Of a stretch of 64,000 nucleotides of DNA, positions 8,409 to 17,533 are shown in pieces. Position 1 is the stretch's first letter, and every line of letters starts with the position of its first letter. The position numbers were made by a program, and so were the translations under genes. Origin of the DNA: Nitratiruptor sp. YY09-18 (lineage in GTDB: Bacteria > Campylobacterota > Campylobacteria > Campylobacterales > Nitratiruptoraceae); contig NZ_AP023065.1 of NCBI RefSeq assembly GCF_016593235.1, positions 1,364,001-1,428,000 of the forward strand, given 5' to 3'. Below the pieces are notes generated by a model. That model made no database searches and was not told where the DNA came from. It was given only the letters and a program-made list of their open reading frames with translations.

Positions 8409-9431
8409 ATGGTATTTATAGATGCATGTTTTCGCAAAAAAACTCCCTACACTCCCATCTGGATGATGCGTCAGGCGGGACGCTATCTCCCTCAATATAT
8501 GGAAGTGCGCAATAAAGCTGGAGACTTCTTGACTCTATGCAAAAACCCCGCAATGGCTGCTGAAGTAACTCTCCAGCCGGTAGAGATTTTAGATGTAGAT
8601 GCTGCAATTTTGTTTAGCGATATCTTGGTCATTCCTTTAGAGATGGGAATGGATCTGCGCTTTGAAAAGGGAGAGGGTCCTGTTTTTAGTAATCCAGTAC
8701 GTACTATGGAAGATCTCGAGCGTCTTTATGACTATCCAGAAGAGCGCCTCACTTATGTCTATGAAACAATCAAAATCGTACGCAAAAAACTTCCAAAAGA
8801 GAAGGCTCTTATCGGTTTTAGTGGCGCTCCTTGGACATTGGCAACATACATGGTAGAAGGTAGAGGCTCCAAGACCTATGCAACAATCAAAAAACTTATT
8901 TATACTGACCCGGCATTTATGCATGCTTTGATGGTAAAAGTTACCGAAGCAATCAAAGCCTATCTTGTCAAGCAGATAGAATCTGGAGTCAATGCAGTGC
9001 AGATTTTTGATAGCTGGGCAAGTGCACTAGAAAAAGAGAAGTATTTTGAATTTGGCTGGGACTATCTGGTAGATATTGCCCAGTTTCTCAAAGAACGTTA
9101 TCCTCATATCCCTGTCATTCTTTTTCCAAAAGGAATAGCTGGATATTTAGATGATATATATGGAAAATTTGATGTTTTCGGAGTCGATTGGAGCACACCA
9201 ATTGATCTAGCAAAAGCCAAACTAGGCGAAAAATATGTTCTCCAGGGAAATATGGAACCAACAAGACTCTACTCTAAAGAAGCTACAAAAGAGGGAGTAG
9301 AAAAAATCATCGAAATTATGGGAGCCAAACCTGGACATATCTTCAACCTCGGGCACGGTATGTTTCCAGACCTCCCTGTAGAAAATGCCAAATATTTAGT
9401 AGAGCTTGTTCACGATTTGACACGCCGATGA
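8409..9431 (+). CDS. hemE: Uroporphyrinogen decarboxylase
   Basis: Removes four acetate carboxyls from uroporphyrinogen III to give coproporphyrinogen III in heme synthesis; its substrate also feeds siroheme, the cofactor of the nirA product in this window. The family signature [15 protein letters not shown] is at residues 16-30 and the FSDILV and GFSGAPWT segments follow. Its 340 residues match the family. It overlaps the following radical SAM gene by four bases (ATGA). Confidence 0.97.
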
Positions 9432-10354
9432 GTATAATTTTTGGTCCAATAAATTCCAGGAGATTTGGACTCTCTCTTGGAATTGACCTCTCTCCAGCGC
9501 AAAAATCATGCAATTTTGACTGCCTCTATTGCGAACTTGAACCTGCAAAACCCATAGATGCAATACAAAATCCACCAAGTGTGAAAGAAGTCATCCAAGA
9601 GACCCAAAAAGCTTTGCAGGAGTTTCGTGAAGTGGATGTTATCACAGTGACAGCAAACGGAGAGCCTACACTATACCCCTATCTTGATGAGCTTGTAGAC
9701 GAACTAAACAGAATCAAAGAGGATAAAAAACTCCTCATTCTCTCCAATGCCAGTCGTATTCATGAACTAGCTATCCAGCAAACTCTTACAAAATTTGATA
9801 TCGTCAAACTCTCTTTAGATAGTGTCGATCAACGCACCTTTAAGCGCCTCGATCGCCCTTTAAAAGGGATTGAAGTCCAAGATATTATTCATGGAATGGT
9901 ATATTTTCGCAATATCTATGATGGTTTTCTTGTGATAGAGATCTTAGTTGTACAGGGTATTAATGATAAACCACAAGAGTTTGTAGCACTCAATGAAGTC
10001 TTGCAACAGATCAAGCCAGATCGTATCGATATTGGTACCATAGACCGTCCTCCAGCATACAAAGTAGCACCTGTAAGCTATGAAAAGCTCTATGAACTCT
10101 CAAAACATATCAAAAATCTTCCAGTTACTATCGTCTCAAGAAAAAAAGAGCATAGCTATCAACTGCATCTTAGCAAAGATGAGCTTATTGATCTCCTTAC
10201 ACATAGACCATTAACACAAGAAGATATAGATACACTTTTTGATGAAGAAACTATCAAACTTGTTAGAAAACTTCTCAAAGATAAAGCTATTACAAAGCGC
10301 AATGTTGGCAATGTAACTTTCTTTGATGCAACAGTCCATACAATTTCAAAATAG
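9428..10354 (+). CDS. Radical SAM protein (COG0731-like)
   Basis: The radical SAM cluster motif CxxxCxxC is present as C28, C32 and C35, followed by a [12 protein letters not shown] segment that fits the family's glycine-rich SAM-binding region. The overall layout resembles the COG0731 Fe-S oxidoreductases related to wyosine-type proteins; the substrate is unknown. The C-terminal 80 residues have no assigned domain. It is coupled to hemE by an ATGA overlap, but a role in heme synthesis is not implied by sequence. It is the last gene before the CRISPR array, whose degenerate end begins 33 bases after its stop. Confidence 0.8.
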
Positions 10355-10387: not shown

Positions 10388-10423
10388 TACATTTATAGGT
10401 TGGGTTTAGAGGGGTCTTAAAAC
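10388..10423 (-). repeat. Degenerate leader-distal terminal repeat
   Basis: Only 26 bases (10398-10423) match the consensus; the ten bases at 10388-10397 diverge. On the crRNA strand this keeps the repeat's 5' part, which pairs with the tracrRNA, and loses its 3' part with the TGTTACAAT promoter-like element. It marks the oldest end of the array. Confidence 0.9.
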
Positions 10424-11180
10424 CCTTACATATAGTTATCGCCGCAGTCTCGCATTGTAACAGGGTTGGGTTTAGAGGGGTCTTAAAACATAAGTAAATT
10501 CAATCAATTCATACTCCTTATTGTAACAGGGTTGGGTTTAGAGGGGTCTTAAAACTACGCAAGCCCCAATACCAATATCCCTATGAATTGTAACAGGGTT
10601 GGGTTTAGAGGGGTCTTAAAACGGTCTATGCAGTCCTATGACGATATCTGCAATTGTAACAGGGTTGGGTTTAGAGGGGTCTTAAAACCATATAGTCTTT
10701 GCTCACACTCACACCATAATTGTAACAGGGTTGGGTTTAGAGGGGTCTTAAAACGATAGAGACTTTTCCACCAATTTGCATCATATTGTAACAGGGTTGG
10801 GTTTAGAGGGGTCTTAAAACTAGGTTCAAGTCCATATGCTCGAAGTTTTAATTGTAACAGGGTTGGGTTTAGAGGGGTCTTAAAACTAGTCTCGCTAACT
10901 CTTCCTTGAGAAGAGTATTGTAACAGGGTTGGGTTTAGAGGGGTCTTAAAACGAAGATGATGAAGTGGAGTTTGTAAAGTTCATTGTAACAGGGTTGGGT
11001 TTAGAGGGGTCTTAAAACAGGAGAAAGCGAGATTTTATGCAAATAGAAATTGTAACAGGGTTGGGTTTAGAGGGGTCTTAAAACAAAAATGGAATGTCTA
11101 TTCCGAGAAGTTTTATTGTAACAGGGTTGGGTTTAGAGGGGTCTTAAAACAATCTATCGTCCCACTAACAACAGATTTGA

Positions 11181-11189
11181 ATTGTAACA
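11181..11189 (-). promoter_or_regulatory. Extended -10 promoter element inside the CRISPR repeat (first of 12 copies)
   Basis: On the minus strand every intact repeat ends in TGTTACAAT, a TGn-extended -10 box. The Neisseria meningitidis type II-C repeat ends in the closely similar TGCTACAAT and is known to drive transcription of each spacer separately. By analogy each spacer here may be transcribed from the repeat just upstream, with the start inside the spacer. The function is inferred; the motif is directly visible. Confidence 0.6.
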
Positions 11190-11231
11190 GGGTTGGGTTT
11201 AGAGGGGTCTTAAAACTATTAAATTTTCATT

Positions 11232-11260
11232 AATTTAAAGAATGTTTTAAATATTGTCAA
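11232..11260 (-). promoter_or_regulatory. Leader promoter for pre-crRNA
   Basis: On the minus strand TTGACA (11260-11255) is followed after 17 bases by TAAATT (11237-11232), a 4/6 match to the -10 consensus. Transcription would begin near 11225, about nine bases before the first repeat. The -35 box shares five bases with that of the opposing tracrRNA promoter. Confidence 0.5.
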
Positions 11261-11282
11261 ATTATATTTTTTTTGTTATACT
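11254..11282 (+). promoter_or_regulatory. tracrRNA promoter
   Basis: TTGTCA (11254-11259), a 17-base spacer and TATACT (11277-11282) form a near-consensus sigma-70 promoter. Its expected start at 11288-11290 falls on the first base of the anti-repeat (11289). Confidence 0.75.
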
Positions 11283-11288
11283 TTAACT

Positions 11289-11376
11289 GGGTTGGGTTTA
11301 GACAGGGGTCTTAAAATCGAGAACTGTTACTACAGTTCCATTGTAGGGCCCGTTTGCGGACGGGCCTCTGGATGAT
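11289..11376 (+). ncRNA. tracrRNA of the type II-C system (3' end approximate)
   Basis: Trans-activating RNA that pairs with crRNA repeats and loads them into Cas9. The anti-repeat at 11289-11317 matches the repeat except for two inserted bases (CA, 11303-11304) and a final T giving a G:U pair, so 14 + 13 pairs form around a bulge. Hairpin one is a 7-bp stem, GAACTGT/ACAGTTC (11321-11338), with a four-base loop. Hairpin two is a 7-bp GC-rich stem (11347-11366) with a six-base loop. No long U run follows, so the 3' end is uncertain. It converges on the cas2 stop at 11377. Confidence 0.85.
11347..11366. terminator. GC-rich hairpin at the tracrRNA / cas2 3' ends
   Basis: GGCCCGT pairs with ACGGGCC across a six-base loop. 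It lies at the tracrRNA 3' end and just past the cas2 stop, so it could end or protect both convergent RNAs. A clear T run is missing on both strands, so intrinsic termination is uncertain; it may be a structural tracrRNA hairpin instead. Confidence 0.5.
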
Positions 11377-11709
11377 TTAAAAATCAAAAAGTAATTGTTG
11401 TACAATCTCTTCTTGTGAGGATTGCTCGCCAACAACTATTTCCATTTTTCCAAATTGTGCATCTGTCATTAAAAACATTCTAACATTTCCTTTTTTTATA
11501 TTAATCTTTAGAAAATCTTTTAATCGTTTCTTTCCATAGTTAGCAGATTGCAACGAATTAAAAACTTTTCCATAGACTGAATATTGCAACCGTATATACC
11601 CTTCTTTATCAAGATAATTAAAAAGCCATCTATATCGCTTACGATCTTTTTTGGATGTTGTTGGGAGGTCGAACATTACTATGAGCCACATTATCTTAAA
11701 AGCACTCAC
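11377..11709 (-). CDS. cas2: CRISPR-associated protein Cas2
   Basis: Forms the spacer-integration complex with Cas1. The 110-residue protein shows the Cas2 start of a beta strand ending in MFDLPTTSKKDRK, with D14 as the conserved acidic residue, then a QYSVYGKVF strand. The start is GTG at 11709, overlapping the cas1 end by 14 bases; an ATG at 11691 would remove six residues. Campylobacter Cas2, as I recall it, carries a similar short extension before the MFD strand, so I kept the longer form. The gene is very AT-rich (11 of 60 bases are G or C at 11461-11520), unlike the middle of cas9. Confidence 0.95.
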   Translation of the reverse strand: MSAFKIMWLIVMFDLPTTSKKDRKRYRWLFNYLDKEGYIRLQYSVYGKVFNSLQSANYGKKRLKDFLKINIKKGNVRMFLMTDAQFGKMEIVVGEQSSQEEIVQQLLFDF

Positions 11710-12610
11710 TCAGAGCCTCAAAATCTATGGTAGGAAAATTAATAAACTCGATTTTTCTATTTAATATCGCAGCTTTGAATCTTTGTATATACCGCACCGA
11801 CGTTGTTCTCATTGTAGAAAGTCCTCCCTCAAAAATTATATATTCCTTATCGAAAATTGTAACGATATCTCTTTTTAATGCAGGGGCTAAATAATCATCT
11901 TTGTAATTTTGCAAAAGAAGATAGATAGCAATATCAACTAAAGGACGAAATGGCTCCATAAGATCATCACTCAGATTAAACGCATTGTAACGATTATCAT
12001 GCCAAAGACCTAATGCAGGAATAAATCCTGCTGCACTAAGATCACGCGTAATAAGACTTCGCAGTATGGCATATGCGTAGTTAAGAGCCTGATTGCGCAC
12101 ATCGAGAGAATTAGCCTCCCGTTTAAGGTCATTAAAAAGCTTTTTCCAATAGATCCGCGCACTCTTAGCCTCAGTCCTATAAGGGTCGCCTGGTCGAATT
12201 TGCTTCGCATATTTTTCAAGTTTTTGATCTTCTTTTGCAAAGTAACTAAGGACAGCCGACTGATTGAGGATCTTGACCCGAATGATCTCCTGCCAGAAAC
12301 GGTCACACAAATCATCGGGAAGGGAAAGCTGGGCCTTGAGGGTCTCTGTGGCCAATGAGCTCTGATGGTAGGGATGGAGAATGGCTGTAGGCATATAGTA
12401 TTCATCGCAAAAGAGTGCAGCCACTTTGTGCTTGCTCAGTGCTGCAAGCACCTTGGCGCTGAGAGTGAATCTGTCTCCTTCGAATATAATACTGTCAATA
12501 TCAGAAAGAGAAAGCTTCACCCTCATAGTCTCATCTTCTATGACGAGATTACCATTTTTAATTCTAAGCTTGCAAGGCTTAGTGATGCGGATAGTCTTCC
12601 AGGCTGCCAT
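11696..12610 (-). CDS. cas1: CRISPR-associated endonuclease Cas1 (type II)
   Basis: Integrase that inserts new spacers at the leader. The 304-residue length is usual for type II Cas1. Likely metal ligands are E147 (in RTEAKSARIYW), H204 (in GLWHDNRYN) and an acidic residue in the DDLMEPFRP segment at 215-219. Its ATG lies inside the cas9 3' end (32-base overlap) with GAGGAG eight bases upstream, so cas9 and cas1 are translationally linked. The 5' half is much richer in G+C than the 3' half (29/60 at 12241-12300 against 18/60 at 11881-11940), suggesting a composition boundary inside the gene. Confidence 0.97.
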   Translation of the reverse strand: MAAWKTIRITKPCKLRIKNGNLVIEDETMRVKLSLSDIDSIIFEGDRFTLSAKVLAALSKHKVAALFCDEYYMPTAILHPYHQSSLATETLKAQLSLPDDLCDRFWQEIIRVKILNQSAVLSYFAKEDQKLEKYAKQIRPGDPYRTEAKSARIYWKKLFNDLKREANSLDVRNQALNYAYAILRSLITRDLSAAGFIPALGLWHDNRYNAFNLSDDLMEPFRPLVDIAIYLLLQNYKDDYLAPALKRDIVTIFDKEYIIFEGGLSTMRTTSVRYIQRFKAAILNRKIEFINFPTIDFEALSECF

Positions 12611-15600
12611 AGCCTGACTCCTCTTTAAACCATTCTACGGCACCTTCGGGCAGGTCACCAAAGACTTCATAGCTCTTGACATGTCCGTCGAGATCGAGAT
12701 GGGCTTTGATAATTCCTGTGGCACTGCCGATACCTATTTGTTTGATCTGACTTCCTGTAGTAAATTTCGATGGTTGGGCTTTCGGGTTGGCTGGGAAACG
12801 AGGATTAAATAATGCAATATTTTTTCTATTTTCCACATAACTGCGCAAACAACCATAATGTATCAAACCTTTTTGATTGAAAATGAACAGCATTTCATTG
12901 AGATAACAGAGCAATCCCGATTTATCTTTTCGAAGTTCTCGGGCATTATTGACATCCATACGGCGGATGATGAGTTTGCCTTTGGAACCCTTTGAGATAT
13001 GGATACCCAGCATATTTTTATCGGTCTCTACCAGCCCTCGTTCAATCTCCATTGCATTGAGCTTATCATAAACAAAACGCATTTTTCGCACCTGCTTGCC
13101 ACCCACTTCGATAGGGGAAGCAATCAGATCTTTGAGCGTTCGCTGAAACTCCTCATCTATCTCTTTGTCGTTTTTGGCATCCATGAGCTGGTAACGGGCA
13201 AGAGTCTGAGCAATCTTAGCCGCCCGTTCCTCTACGACACGATAGCTCTCATCATTTGTATTGCCAATTCTGTGTAGCCAAAGCTTTTGGCGGATCTCCT
13301 TATCATAACGTTTCATAAACTCCTCTGCCGTGAGCTTATGACGATCTTTGATGACATTGAGGCCGTCAAAAGCCTCAAGAATATTCTTGCGAAGTGTAGG
13401 TACTTCGTGGCGAGCAGAATAAACAGTCTCTTTATGGGAAGAGGCGGAGAGGGGTTTCTTGTCCACCCAATATGAGACGCTGCGGATCGTACCGAACATG
13501 TCTTTGTAAAAGAGGCTCTCCTCCCCTTTGGACATGAAACGGCAAAATGCCTCGTCGATGTAGTCGGCGAGGGTGAGTCCTTCGATGTGAGGAGTGTATT
13601 TTTTCCAAAGCTCCTTGAGCTCTGCTTCGCTTTTGCCGTAATTCTCACGCAACATCCGATGCAGGCGGTTCTGCCAACCGCGAGTGAGGGTCGAGAGGAT
13701 GAGGGCATCTTCGGCGTGGTGGAAATTGGTCTCTCGGCTTTTGGATTTGATCCCGAGGAGGGAGCGGGTCTTGCTGGTGACCTTGCCGGGGATCATTCGA
13801 ACCCCTATGCCGTTCTTTCTCAGCTTAGGATCCGGAAAGGGATAGTAGCGTTTGAGGACCTGGGCAACTAATGCTTCAAGATAACTGGTTGCGCGGATCC
13901 CCTTGCTATGGGTATTTTCGGTGTAAATTTCGTCAAGAGATTGAGCTAAAAGATTTTTGCGTTTTTTCCAATCGATCAATCCCTTTTCAAAGAGCATTTC
14001 AACTCGTTTGCTATATTCTGCATCTCCAGCAAGCCAATCACCAGGGAGCCGATTGCCTTTGGCCGTATTGCTACTTTTGAGTGCAACGATGGTATTGTAG
14101 TCAGTGTTTAGACCACCCAGGCTTTGTGGAACGATATGTTCGATGTCAGCACTACCGTCAAGGAGCTGGGATATGTTGATGACCTTTCCACTATAAAGAT
14201 CAAGTCCTTTTTGGCTCTCCCAAAGTTGAATCTTTCTTGCCAATCGCTTGTCTATTAAAGGAAACTCTTTTTTGTATCTATTTATGATCTCATCAATAGC
14301 TTTTTCCCGTTCATTCATAGCCTTATAGATCTTATTACGAATCTGTTGCGGGAGGGCATCTCTGGTAGTCTCTAAAATAATCTCATCAAAGGGTCCATAA
14401 CGCCAACTCAAATCAGCGATAAGCCCCAATGCCCAAGAAGCAAGGGATTTGATAGCATGGTTGTTGATGACATTTTCTTCTTTTTCAAAGAGATTGCCCT
14501 CTCCCAAATGGAGATGTCGCAGGGATTTAGGGAAATGGGAATAATCTTCATGATCCTCAAATCCAAGAATCCTCTGGATCTCTTTTTCATCATGCCCTTG
14601 GAGAAAAAGGGGCAGTGCTTCGAGGATATATCGATGGGAGAGTTCACGAGTCCCAGATTTTTTGTTTTTGAAAAGTTCTAGCAGCTCCCTATTGTCTGTA
14701 TCGATCCCTTTCCCGTCTATCAAGACTCGTAACCGATCAAGAGCCTCCTGTGGGGTTTTGGAACGCTGGAGAATCTCGGCCAGTTCTCTGAATATCTGCA
14801 AGGCATCCGGATGTTTCTGGATACTGGCAAAAAGTTCTTTAAATTTGTGTATATCTGCAAGAAAGAAAAAGGGGACGAAGGTTCGGGGCTCTTTTTTGCC
14901 TTTGACAATACGCTCATCTTCCAAACTGAAAATTTTTTGCTCGGGGGAGAGTCCGAGGATTTTACGCAGATCCTTATGGGTGATCTTTTTGAGACTTTTC
15001 CCTTGAGCTATTTTCTTTTCTACCCACTCAATAACCTTTTCCCGGTCCTCCTGTGTCACTTCATAGCCGTCAATGTTCAAATCGGCAAGTTTTTTGTATA
15101 GGCGATAGAGATCATAGAGATAGCTGTATGCTGGGGCAGCGGGCTCCTCCTTATAAAAGGTACATCTGCCAAAAAGGGATTCGTCAATTGTAGGCATCTC
15201 CTGGTCAGTTATGCAAGCTTTTAGCTCATCGATAAGTTCGGAAATCTGTTCTTTGGTCAAATCAAAAGCTCCAAATTCTGCCTGGCGAAGCAGGATTTTT
15301 TCAATCTCCTCTTCAATATCCTCCCGCCGTATCATCTTTTCATAGTCCTCATGGTTGCGGTAGGAACGAAGGTCGCCTGCCTCTACTGCCCGGTGGATCG
15401 TCTGGGCGATGGTCTCTCCGCCATATTTTTTACGCAGCTCCTCCAGATGGCGCAGAGCGTTATAAACCTGGCGCCGCTCATCAGCTTTTTTCTTCGACTC
15501 ATTCTCAAAATCAATGAGGCCAAGTTCTAGTTCCAATTCATAGAGCAAGTCCTCTGTGGCAATCGATTTGTAGCCTCTATGTTTGGCCATATGGGCAAAA

Positions 15601-15968
15601 ATAGCAAAGAGCTCTTGAGAGGTTAATGGCCGCTGCCATACGTCGATAGCACGGAGCTGCCATCGGTTTTTGATAGGATTGTTTTTGGAGTCGTTGATCT
15701 TCATTGCCTCCGAATAATCAAGAATTCCATAACGTTCCATAGTTTGTGCCACACAACGGATGCGCTTTTTGCGCTTTTCTATGAGGCGACGCATACTTTT
15801 GTATTTTGACCGGATAGTTTGGGGAGATTCGCCACTTTGTTCATCATAAGGAGTATTGCGCATAACAACTGAATTGTCCAAACATGTATATGAATTTGCT
15901 CCAGACTCTTCTAAAATAGCATAACCAAAAGATGTAATTCCTAAATCAACCGCAAGAATTTTTCTCAT
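12579..15968 (-). CDS. cas9: Cas9 RNA-guided endonuclease, type II-C
   Basis: Cuts DNA matching a crRNA:tracrRNA guide. The 1129 residues are in the compact II-C range. RuvC-I carries D8 (AVDLGITSFGYAIL); an Arg-rich bridge helix follows at about 50-75; RuvC-II has the ETTRD glutamate near 531; the HNH domain has DIEHIVPQSLGG near 607-618 with later Asn residues; RuvC-III has HHAEDA near 750-755. All catalytic positions look intact. The C-terminal part, roughly 900-1129, is the wedge and PAM-interacting region; the PAM cannot be read from it. AGGTGA lies just before the ATG. No csn2 or cas4 is present, giving II-C. The centre is unusually G+C-rich (35/60 at 13681-13740). Confidence 0.97.
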   Translation of the reverse strand: MRKILAVDLGITSFGYAILEESGANSYTCLDNSVVMRNTPYDEQSGESPQTIRSKYKSMRRLIEKRKKRIRCVAQTMERYGILDYSEAMKINDSKNNPIKNRWQLRAIDVWQRPLTSQELFAIFAHMAKHRGYKSIATEDLLYELELELGLIDFENESKKKADERRQVYNALRHLEELRKKYGGETIAQTIHRAVEAGDLRSYRNHEDYEKMIRREDIEEEIEKILLRQAEFGAFDLTKEQISELIDELKACITDQEMPTIDESLFGRCTFYKEEPAAPAYSYLYDLYRLYKKLADLNIDGYEVTQEDREKVIEWVEKKIAQGKSLKKITHKDLRKILGLSPEQKIFSLEDERIVKGKKEPRTFVPFFFLADIHKFKELFASIQKHPDALQIFRELAEILQRSKTPQEALDRLRVLIDGKGIDTDNRELLELFKNKKSGTRELSHRYILEALPLFLQGHDEKEIQRILGFEDHEDYSHFPKSLRHLHLGEGNLFEKEENVINNHAIKSLASWALGLIADLSWRYGPFDEIILETTRDALPQQIRNKIYKAMNEREKAIDEIINRYKKEFPLIDKRLARKIQLWESQKGLDLYSGKVINISQLLDGSADIEHIVPQSLGGLNTDYNTIVALKSSNTAKGNRLPGDWLAGDAEYSKRVEMLFEKGLIDWKKRKNLLAQSLDEIYTENTHSKGIRATSYLEALVAQVLKRYYPFPDPKLRKNGIGVRMIPGKVTSKTRSLLGIKSKSRETNFHHAEDALILSTLTRGWQNRLHRMLRENYGKSEAELKELWKKYTPHIEGLTLADYIDEAFCRFMSKGEESLFYKDMFGTIRSVSYWVDKKPLSASSHKETVYSARHEVPTLRKNILEAFDGLNVIKDRHKLTAEEFMKRYDKEIRQKLWLHRIGNTNDESYRVVEERAAKIAQTLARYQLMDAKNDKEIDEEFQRTLKDLIASPIEVGGKQVRKMRFVYDKLNAMEIERGLVETDKNMLGIHISKGSKGKLIIRRMDVNNARELRKDKSGLLCYLNEMLFIFNQKGLIHYGCLRSYVENRKNIALFNPRFPANPKAQPSKFTTGSQIKQIGIGSATGIIKAHLDLDGHVKSYEVFGDLPEGAVEWFKEESGYGSLEDYPHH

Positions 15969-16111: not shown

Positions 16112-16180
16112 TGCAAAAAGCTTTTCTCTTGCGACTGCTAATCATCTGCAAAGAAAAAATCACAACTGAAGAAGGACATG

Positions 16181-17533
16181 ATGAGCGAAAAAGCTACTCA
16201 AAACGAAAATATAGAAGATTCCTCCCAAAACAACGAAAGCAAAAACAGCGACCAACGCAAACATATCCCGGTAGATGGCTACACTATCGAAGAGCTTCGC
16301 ACAAAAACAATAGATGAACTTCTCAATATTGCTCAAGAGCTCGGTATCGAAAACCCGCAAGAGCTCAAACGTCAAGACTTGATGTTTGAGATTCTCAAAA
16401 ATCAGGTAAGCAAAGGCGGCTATATCCTCTTTACAGGGATTTTGGAGATAACTCCTGAGGGGTATGGATTTTTGCGTGCCATCAATGAAAACTTCTCAAA
16501 CAGCGCCAACGATGCATATGTAAGTGCTACGCAGATTCGCCGCTTTGCTCTGAGAACAGGTGATATTGTCACAGGACAAGTGCGTCCTCCAAAGGACCAA
16601 GAGCGCTACTACGCACTTCTTAAAATCGAAGCTATTAACTACCTCCCACCAGAAGAGTCCAAAAAGCGCCCTCTCTTTGATAACCTTACCCCGCTCTATC
16701 CCACAGAAAAGCTCAAACTCGAATATGATCCTATGCACCTCACAGGTCGTGTGCTTGATCTTTTCACACCTATTGGGAAAGGACAGCGTGCACTTATCGT
16801 CGCACCTCCACGAAGCGGAAAAACTGAGCTGATGAAAGAGCTTGCACATGGCATCGCTCACAACCATCCAGAAGTAGAACTTATAGTACTTCTTGTCGAT
16901 GAGCGACCCGAAGAGGTTACAGATATGGAAAGAAGTGTTAAAGGTGAAGTTTACAGCTCTACTTTTGATATGCCAGCAAAAAATCATGTCCGTGTCGCAG
17001 AACTTGTCATAGAAAAAGCAAAAAGACGTGTAGAGATGGGCAAAGATGTAGTCATTTTACTTGACTCCATTACTCGTCTTGCCCGTGCTTACAACACTGT
17101 CACCCCTTCTAGTGGGAAGGTTCTCAGTGGTGGTGTAGATGCAAATGCTCTTCATAAACCAAAACGTTTCTTTGGTGCAGCGCGTAATATCGAAGAGGGA
17201 GGCAGCCTCACAATCATAGCTACTGCACTTATTGATACCGGTTCACGCATGGATGAAGTAATTTTTGAGGAGTTCAAAGGAACAGGAAACAGTGAGATAG
17301 TCCTCGATCGCCGCATAGCAGACCGCCGTATCTACCCGGCAATCGATATTCTCAAATCTGGTACAAGAAAAGAGGAGCTCCTTGTCGATCCAAATACACT
17401 CCAAAAAGTATGGGCTCTGCGCAATGCGATGCAGTCTATGGATGAAGTGGAGGCATTAAAATTCTTATACTCCAAAATGCTCAAAACCAAAAACAATGAA
17501 GAGTTTCTCTCCATTATGAATGAAGGTGCCTAA
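16181..17533 (+). CDS. rho: Transcription termination factor Rho
   Basis: Hexameric RNA-dependent ATPase that ends transcription. An N-terminal Asn/Glu/Ser-rich stretch of about 35 residues precedes the Rho N-terminal and cold-shock-type RNA-binding domain ([14 protein letters not shown]). The Walker A motif is PPRSGKT ending near residue 215, and [11 protein letters not shown] and [13 protein letters not shown] complete the ATPase core. Two adjacent ATGs (16178, 16181) follow AAGGA; I chose the second for spacing. Relevant to this window because almost all convergent genes lack room for intrinsic terminators. murI follows with its start four bases after the stop. Confidence 0.97.

What the first reader, a model, noticed from the sequence alone, without database searches (positions are those of the whole stretch)
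10388..15968. Complete compact type II-C CRISPR-Cas9 locus in a Campylobacterota chromosome
Cas9 of 1129 residues with intact RuvC (D8, E near 531, HHAED near 750) and HNH (EHIVPQ near 608) motifs, overlapping cas1 and cas2, tracrRNA, leader and 12 spacers are all present. There is no csn2 or cas4. Every element needed for adaptation and interference can be read, so the system is probably active. Whether this exact Cas9 has been studied is unknown to me.
Basis: partly seen in the sequence, partly recalled or inferred. Interest (0 to 1): 0.85.

Follow-up and report, generated by a model that had tools for sequence, protein, structure and literature searches.

The report
Known CRISPR-Cas9 locus, flipped spacer array
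This is a complete CRISPR-Cas9 immune locus from the deep-sea vent bacterium Nitratiruptor sp. YY09-18 that was already published in 2022 and has a biochemically studied near-twin Cas9; the one unexpected feature is that its spacer array runs in the opposite direction, relative to the cas genes, from what is described as the rule for this CRISPR subtype.

Summary
Window 10388-15968 holds intact cas9 (1129 aa), overlapping cas1 and cas2, a tracrRNA gene, an AT-rich leader and 13 repeats with 12 spacers; no csn2 or cas4. The assembly (1,732,647 + 24,473 bp) matches Nitratiruptor sp. YY09-18, whose II-C system was published in 2022 (PMC9723563). The closest Cas9 (88%) is that of Nitratifractor salsuginis, "Nsa", already shown to be an active, heat-stable nuclease (PMC7606464). 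So the locus is ordinary in kind and already known.

Added here: the tracrRNA is supported by covariation in ten relatives. Four of 12 spacers match Nitratiruptor phages. The cas genes were probably acquired horizontally. crRNA-sense repeats lie on the same strand as the cas genes, with the degenerate repeat cas-distal; published work states the opposite for II-C. In 44 Campylobacterales loci, 14 are co-directional (one clade, holding the window and Nsa) and 30 antisense, needing one change on the Cas9 tree, while the tracrRNA keeps its place where I could locate it. This looks like one ancestral array inversion; I found no report of it in the open-access papers searched. Immunity is likely but unproven. 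The PAM is unresolved.

The parts
12579..15968 (-). cas9, 1129 aa, intact RuvC (D8, E533, H750/H751, D754) and HNH (E610, H611, N634)
11696..12610 (-). cas1, type II (NMENI family), 304 aa, overlaps cas9 by 32 nt
11377..11709 (-). cas2, 110 aa, GTG start, overlaps cas1 by 14 nt
11290..11371 (+). tracrRNA gene (3' end uncertain): anti-repeat 11290-11316, hairpin 1 11321-11338, hairpin 2 11347-11366
   Evidence: pairs with the repeat (about 26 bp with a 2-nt bulge); covariation in 10 relatives, 10 of 14 pairs with double changes
11254..11282 (+). predicted tracrRNA promoter TTGTCA-17-TATACT
   Evidence: a 9-12 of 12 match on the same strand in all 14 clade members, no shuffle control made for this across relatives
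11217..11289 (.). leader / divergent promoter region, 12% GC, between tracrRNA and first repeat
11232..11260 (-). weakly supported pre-crRNA promoter TTGACA-17-TAAATT, -35 box overlapping that of the tracrRNA promoter
   Evidence: not conserved in most relatives
10388..11216 (-). CRISPR array, crRNA sense on - strand (same strand as cas genes): 13 repeats GTTTTAAGACCCCTCTAAACCCAACCCTGTTACAAT, 12 spacers; each full repeat ends in an extended -10-like TGTTACAAT
10388..10423 (-). degenerate terminal repeat at the cas-distal end
   Evidence: 9 of 36 mismatches

Best explanation
It is a complete type II-C CRISPR-Cas9 adaptive immune system of Nitratiruptor sp. YY09-18, belonging to a clade whose best-known member is the Nitratifractor salsuginis (Nsa) system. 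Proposed working: Cas1-Cas2, probably with Cas9, insert 30-nt phage pieces at the leader end (11216). crRNAs are transcribed on the - strand, mainly from extended -10 promoters inside each repeat. The tracrRNA is transcribed divergently from its own promoter toward cas2. The crRNA-tracrRNA duplex guides Cas9 to cut phages of the NrS-1/NrS-2/NrS-4 kind. Shown: the parts, repeat/anti-repeat complementarity, tracrRNA covariation, spacer matches to phages, and an array orientation reversed against other Campylobacterales II-C loci. Inferred: expression, processing, PAM, interference, and that a single ancestral inversion of the array made the arrangement. The cas genes probably arrived by horizontal transfer.
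For: Gene families and intact catalytic residues. tracrRNA covariation: 96% of cells paired, 29 double-change cells against a shuffled mean of 9.8. Repeat-tracr fold -60.2 kcal/mol, z -7.4. Spacers 3, 4, 6, 10 match NrS phages with 1-4 mismatches; of 50,697 phage records only the five Nitratiruptor phages match. No self-target in the own genome at E<=1. Cas9 88% to N. salsuginis but HemE only 69%; same-genus G012 Cas9 71% but HemE 88%. Array orientation: 14 co-directional, 30 antisense, one change on the Cas9 tree. tracrRNA cas2-adjacent and antisense to cas in the clade and in six antisense-array loci where it could be located. Strain identity by exact replicon sizes and publication. Nsa Cas9 active in vitro, also above 60 C.
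Against: No RNA-seq or interference data. Four spacers give no consistent PAM: 3' flanks CAATAG/CTATTG, AAGATA, CAAAAG/CAAAGG, CAAAAG. Eight spacers have no match. crRNA polarity rests on sequence (repeat ends, anti-repeat, degenerate terminal repeat), not on transcript data. The region's promoter count is no higher than in shuffles (3 found, 2.7 expected). The SH-aLRT support for the co-directional clade as a whole is 90 in the large quick tree, though starred 100/100 in the smaller careful tree.
Confidence: 0.93

Rival explanations
1. The arrays of this clade only look reversed: the true crRNA strand is +, giving the canonical antisense II-C orientation, and the tracrRNA lies on the - strand.
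For: No transcript data were available; the leader promoter on the crRNA strand is weak in most relatives.
Against: A tracrRNA on - would have its hairpins 5' of the anti-repeat. The repeat's first 14 nt (GTTTTAAGACCCCT) equal those of L108, whose array lies the other way. Repeats end in the II-C signature gnTAnaaT on the - strand (PMC4607530). The degenerate repeat is cas-distal in the window, L095 and L105. Promoter-like sites on the tracr strand occur in all 14.
Confidence: 0.04
2. The system is present but not active in immunity (silenced or decaying).
For: Phage protospacers differ from the spacers by 1-4 bases, so memory is not recent for these phages; no expression data.
Against: All frames open, catalytic residues intact, 12 of 13 repeats identical, tracrRNA intact; no prophage in the strain (PMC9723563).
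Confidence: 0.12
3. A vertically inherited Nitratiruptor locus lost in most species, rather than a horizontally acquired one.
For: One other species of the genus (G012) has the same clade of system.
Against: The Cas9 tree pairs the window with N. salsuginis, not with G012 (99-100% support), against HemE identities; G012 and G010 carry hemE-radical SAM-about 1 kb-rho with no CRISPR at this site.
Confidence: 0.07

Closest known systems
CRISPR_YY0918C3, subtype II-C system of Nitratiruptor sp. YY09-18 (PMC9723563)
   Same: The same locus: replicon sizes identical, and published spacer matches s4, s5, s7, s11 are this array's spacers 3, 4, 6, 10.
   Different: The published numbering is shifted by one, which implies that the tracrRNA anti-repeat was counted as a repeat; tracrRNA and array orientation are not discussed in the text I read.
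Nsa Cas9 of Nitratifractor salsuginis (PMC7606464)
   Same: Cas9 88%, Cas1 80%, Cas2 84% identical; same gene order, overlaps, tracrRNA plan and co-directional array. G045 recognised by its genome size 2,101,285.
   Different: 12% protein divergence; the window's host was cultivated at 37 C; PAM of the window protein untested.
Canonical II-C loci of Campylobacter jejuni / Neisseria (PMC4607530, PMC3936727)
   Same: cas9-cas1-cas2 only; promoter-like 3' end of repeats; in Campylobacter-like loci the tracrRNA is next to cas2 and antisense to cas.
   Different: Their array is antisense/convergent with a cas-proximal degenerate repeat; here it is co-directional with a cas-distal degenerate repeat.

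Membership tests
Type II CRISPR-Cas | Cas9 with RuvC and HNH nuclease domains | tested here: met
   TIGR01865 389 bits; HNH_4 43 bits; catalytic residues aligned
Type II CRISPR-Cas | tracrRNA with anti-repeat | tested here: met
Subtype II-C | cas9, cas1, cas2 only; no csn2 (II-A) and no cas4 (II-B) | tested here: met
   The locus is bounded by a radical SAM gene (9428-10354) and rho (16178-17533), with no other gene of fitting size between
Subtype II-C | repeat 3' end carries a -10-like promoter (gnTAnaaT) | tested here: met
   TGTTACAAT at the 3' end of all 12 full repeats (consensus)
Subtype II-C | array antisense to the cas genes (published as a rule, not as the definition) | tested here: not met
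   Co-directional in the window and 13 relatives; rule stated in PMC6737040 and PMC4607530. The subtype is defined by gene content, so this does not remove membership.
Subtype II-C | crRNA-guided DNA interference | not testable with these tools
   needs RNA-seq and a plasmid interference assay
Nsa-type Cas9 clade | Cas9 monophyly with N. salsuginis Cas9 | tested here: met
   sister rows, 100/99 support and 99
Nsa-type Cas9 clade | same PAM as Nsa Cas9 | tested here: inconclusive
   only four independent protospacers, all with mismatches; the Nsa PAM is not given in the main text I could read

The most novel reading that the evidence does not exclude
In one Campylobacterales clade of II-C systems the CRISPR array was inverted once while the tracrRNA stayed in place, giving a II-A-like polarity with divergent tracrRNA and crRNA transcription from one shared 60-95 bp leader. 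This contradicts the published statement that II-C arrays always oppose the cas genes, and has not been described before.
Probability: 0.45. Interest if true: 0.4.

Novelty: already known. Interest (0 to 1): 0.3.

Why it matters
As a CRISPR-Cas9 locus it adds one published system to a well-known kind. What may matter is narrower. Array direction in II-C is predicted from a rule that is wrong for this whole clade, so crRNA strands, leader ends and PAM sides could be mis-assigned. The clade also offers a natural comparison of tandem and divergent crRNA/tracrRNA layouts with otherwise similar parts, and includes a Cas9 (Nsa) of biotechnological interest for its heat stability.

Tried and rejected
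Rfam scan at gathering thresholds gave no hit, so known tracrRNA models do not cover this one. No related DNA in plasmids. Exact 22-nt scans of IMG/VR with the PAM-proximal parts of four unmatched spacers: none found. Related phages in IMG/VR: two contigs only, neither bearing a protospacer. Spacers of the relatives against NrS phages: no match. I recalled a Nsa PAM of the form NRGNK but could not verify it, and three of four protospacers here would not fit it; left open. The idea that the tracrRNA needs its own strong promoter because the array was flipped was dropped: an antisense-array relative (L108) also seems by eye to have one. An automatic anti-repeat search failed in many loci (masked or divergent), so only clear cases are used. 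No structure prediction was run, since sequence evidence was sufficient.

Full report
What is there. The locus spans 10388-15968 as stated. cas9 (12579-15968), cas1 (11696-12610) and cas2 (11377-11709) lie on the - strand with overlaps of 32 and 14 nt and match their families well above curated cut-offs; the overlaps recur in the close relatives. The catalytic residues D8, E533, H611, N634, H750/H751 and D754 are conserved in relatives. The array has 13 repeats (12 identical, the one at 10388 degenerate) and 12 spacers of 30-31 nt. Nothing else of gene size fits between the radical SAM gene and rho, so csn2 and cas4 are absent here.

Where it is. The genome has a 1,732,647 bp chromosome in a 1,757,120 bp, two-contig assembly. 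These are exactly the sizes (1,732,647 + 24,473) of Nitratiruptor sp. YY09-18 in PMC9723563. That paper reports a II-C system in this strain, and its listed spacers s4, s5, s7 and s11 are spacers 3, 4, 6 and 10 counted from the leader here. The shift by one implies that its CRISPR finder took the tracrRNA anti-repeat for a repeat. So the finding is not new.

Closest studied relative. Among 399 genomes of the order, the best Cas9 match is G045, 88% identical. Its single contig of 2,101,285 bp identifies it as Nitratifractor salsuginis. That protein, Nsa Cas9, was purified in PMC7606464: it is active, works above 60 C, needs spacers longer than 20 nt and leaves staggered ends. Identity is fairly even along the protein, including the C-terminal part (78-94% per 50-residue block beyond residue 850).

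tracrRNA. On the + strand, an anti-repeat (11290-11316) is followed by two hairpins. In an alignment of ten relatives the two hairpins are paired in 96% of cells, with double changes at 10 of 14 pairs (29 cells against 9.8 in shuffles; sliding the pairing destroys it). Repeat and tracrRNA form a duplex of about 26 bp with a 2-nt bulge when joined. A promoter TTGTCA-17-TATACT lies just upstream, and a match of 9-12 of 12 is found on that strand in all 14 clade members. No control for the AT-rich composition was made there.

Targets. Four of 12 spacers match Nitratiruptor phages NrS-1, NrS-2, NrS-3 and NrS-4 in head morphogenesis, tape measure and hypothetical genes with 1-4 mismatches; shuffled spacers never did better than 6. 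Only the five Nitratiruptor phages match among 50,697 records. No self-target was seen. The 3' flanks (CAATAG/CTATTG, AAGATA, CAAAAG/CAAAGG, CAAAAG) hint at an A-rich PAM but do not define one.

Origin. The Cas9 tree pairs the window with N. salsuginis with full support, while HemE shows the reverse kinship: 69% to N. salsuginis, 88% to G012, whose Cas9 is only 71% identical. Fourteen of the 16 species of the genus lack a related cas9, some in incomplete genomes. In G012 and G010 the radical SAM and rho genes are separated by about 1 kb holding an unrelated reading frame, with no CRISPR. Horizontal transfer is the simplest reading.

Array direction. The crRNA-sense repeat (GTTTTA...TACAAT) lies on the cas strand, and the degenerate repeat is cas-distal. 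PMC4607530 and PMC6737040 describe II-C arrays as antisense to cas, the latter as a rule. I read array direction in 44 Campylobacterales loci: 14 co-directional and 30 antisense (three of the 14, L098, L103, L106, and three of the 30, L147, L152, L169, were assigned by hand from visible repeats). One change on a 52-row Cas9 tree explains the pattern. The co-directional group is the Nsa clade plus its sister group. In six antisense-array loci where the anti-repeat is clear (L143, L147, L150, L151, L154, L160) the tracrRNA sits next to cas2 and antisense to cas, exactly as here. The likely history is therefore an inversion of the array alone, leaving tracrRNA and array divergent around a short AT-rich leader. 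I found no statement of this in the open-access papers searched, but the N. salsuginis locus is well known and subscription papers were not searchable.

Verdict. Confirmed, ordinary in kind, already published, probably functional. The array inversion is a modest, well-supported addition.

Noticed in passing
G000:C1:1305246-1306040 (locus L091:304-2457): The same genome encodes a 717-aa reverse transcriptase-Cas1 fusion (Pfam RVT_1 and Cas_Cas1), presumably part of the published III-A system; a third cas1 lies at C1:1291908-1292681.
   Followed up: partly
window 11280-11315 and the same site in L094-L107: In 12 of 14 clade members the anti-repeat keeps the repeat's -10-like box but with its last T changed (TACAAC, TATAAC or TACATA; the window instead reads TAAAGT and L107 is unchanged), as if the repeat-borne promoter had been silenced there. 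Counted by eye.
   Followed up: partly
window 12579-15968 (residue 610): The residue before the HNH catalytic His is Glu, not Asp, in the window and its nine closest relatives (DIEHIVP); the sister group L104-L107 has Asp. Nsa Cas9 is active, so Glu is tolerated.
   Followed up: partly
L109 (G241): cas9 and cas1 appear joined in one open frame with no CRISPR array detected nearby beyond one repeat, perhaps a decayed or fused locus.
   Followed up: no
L169 (G166): A type II locus with arrays on both sides of the cas genes in opposite directions and a cas2 hit on the opposite strand.
   Followed up: no
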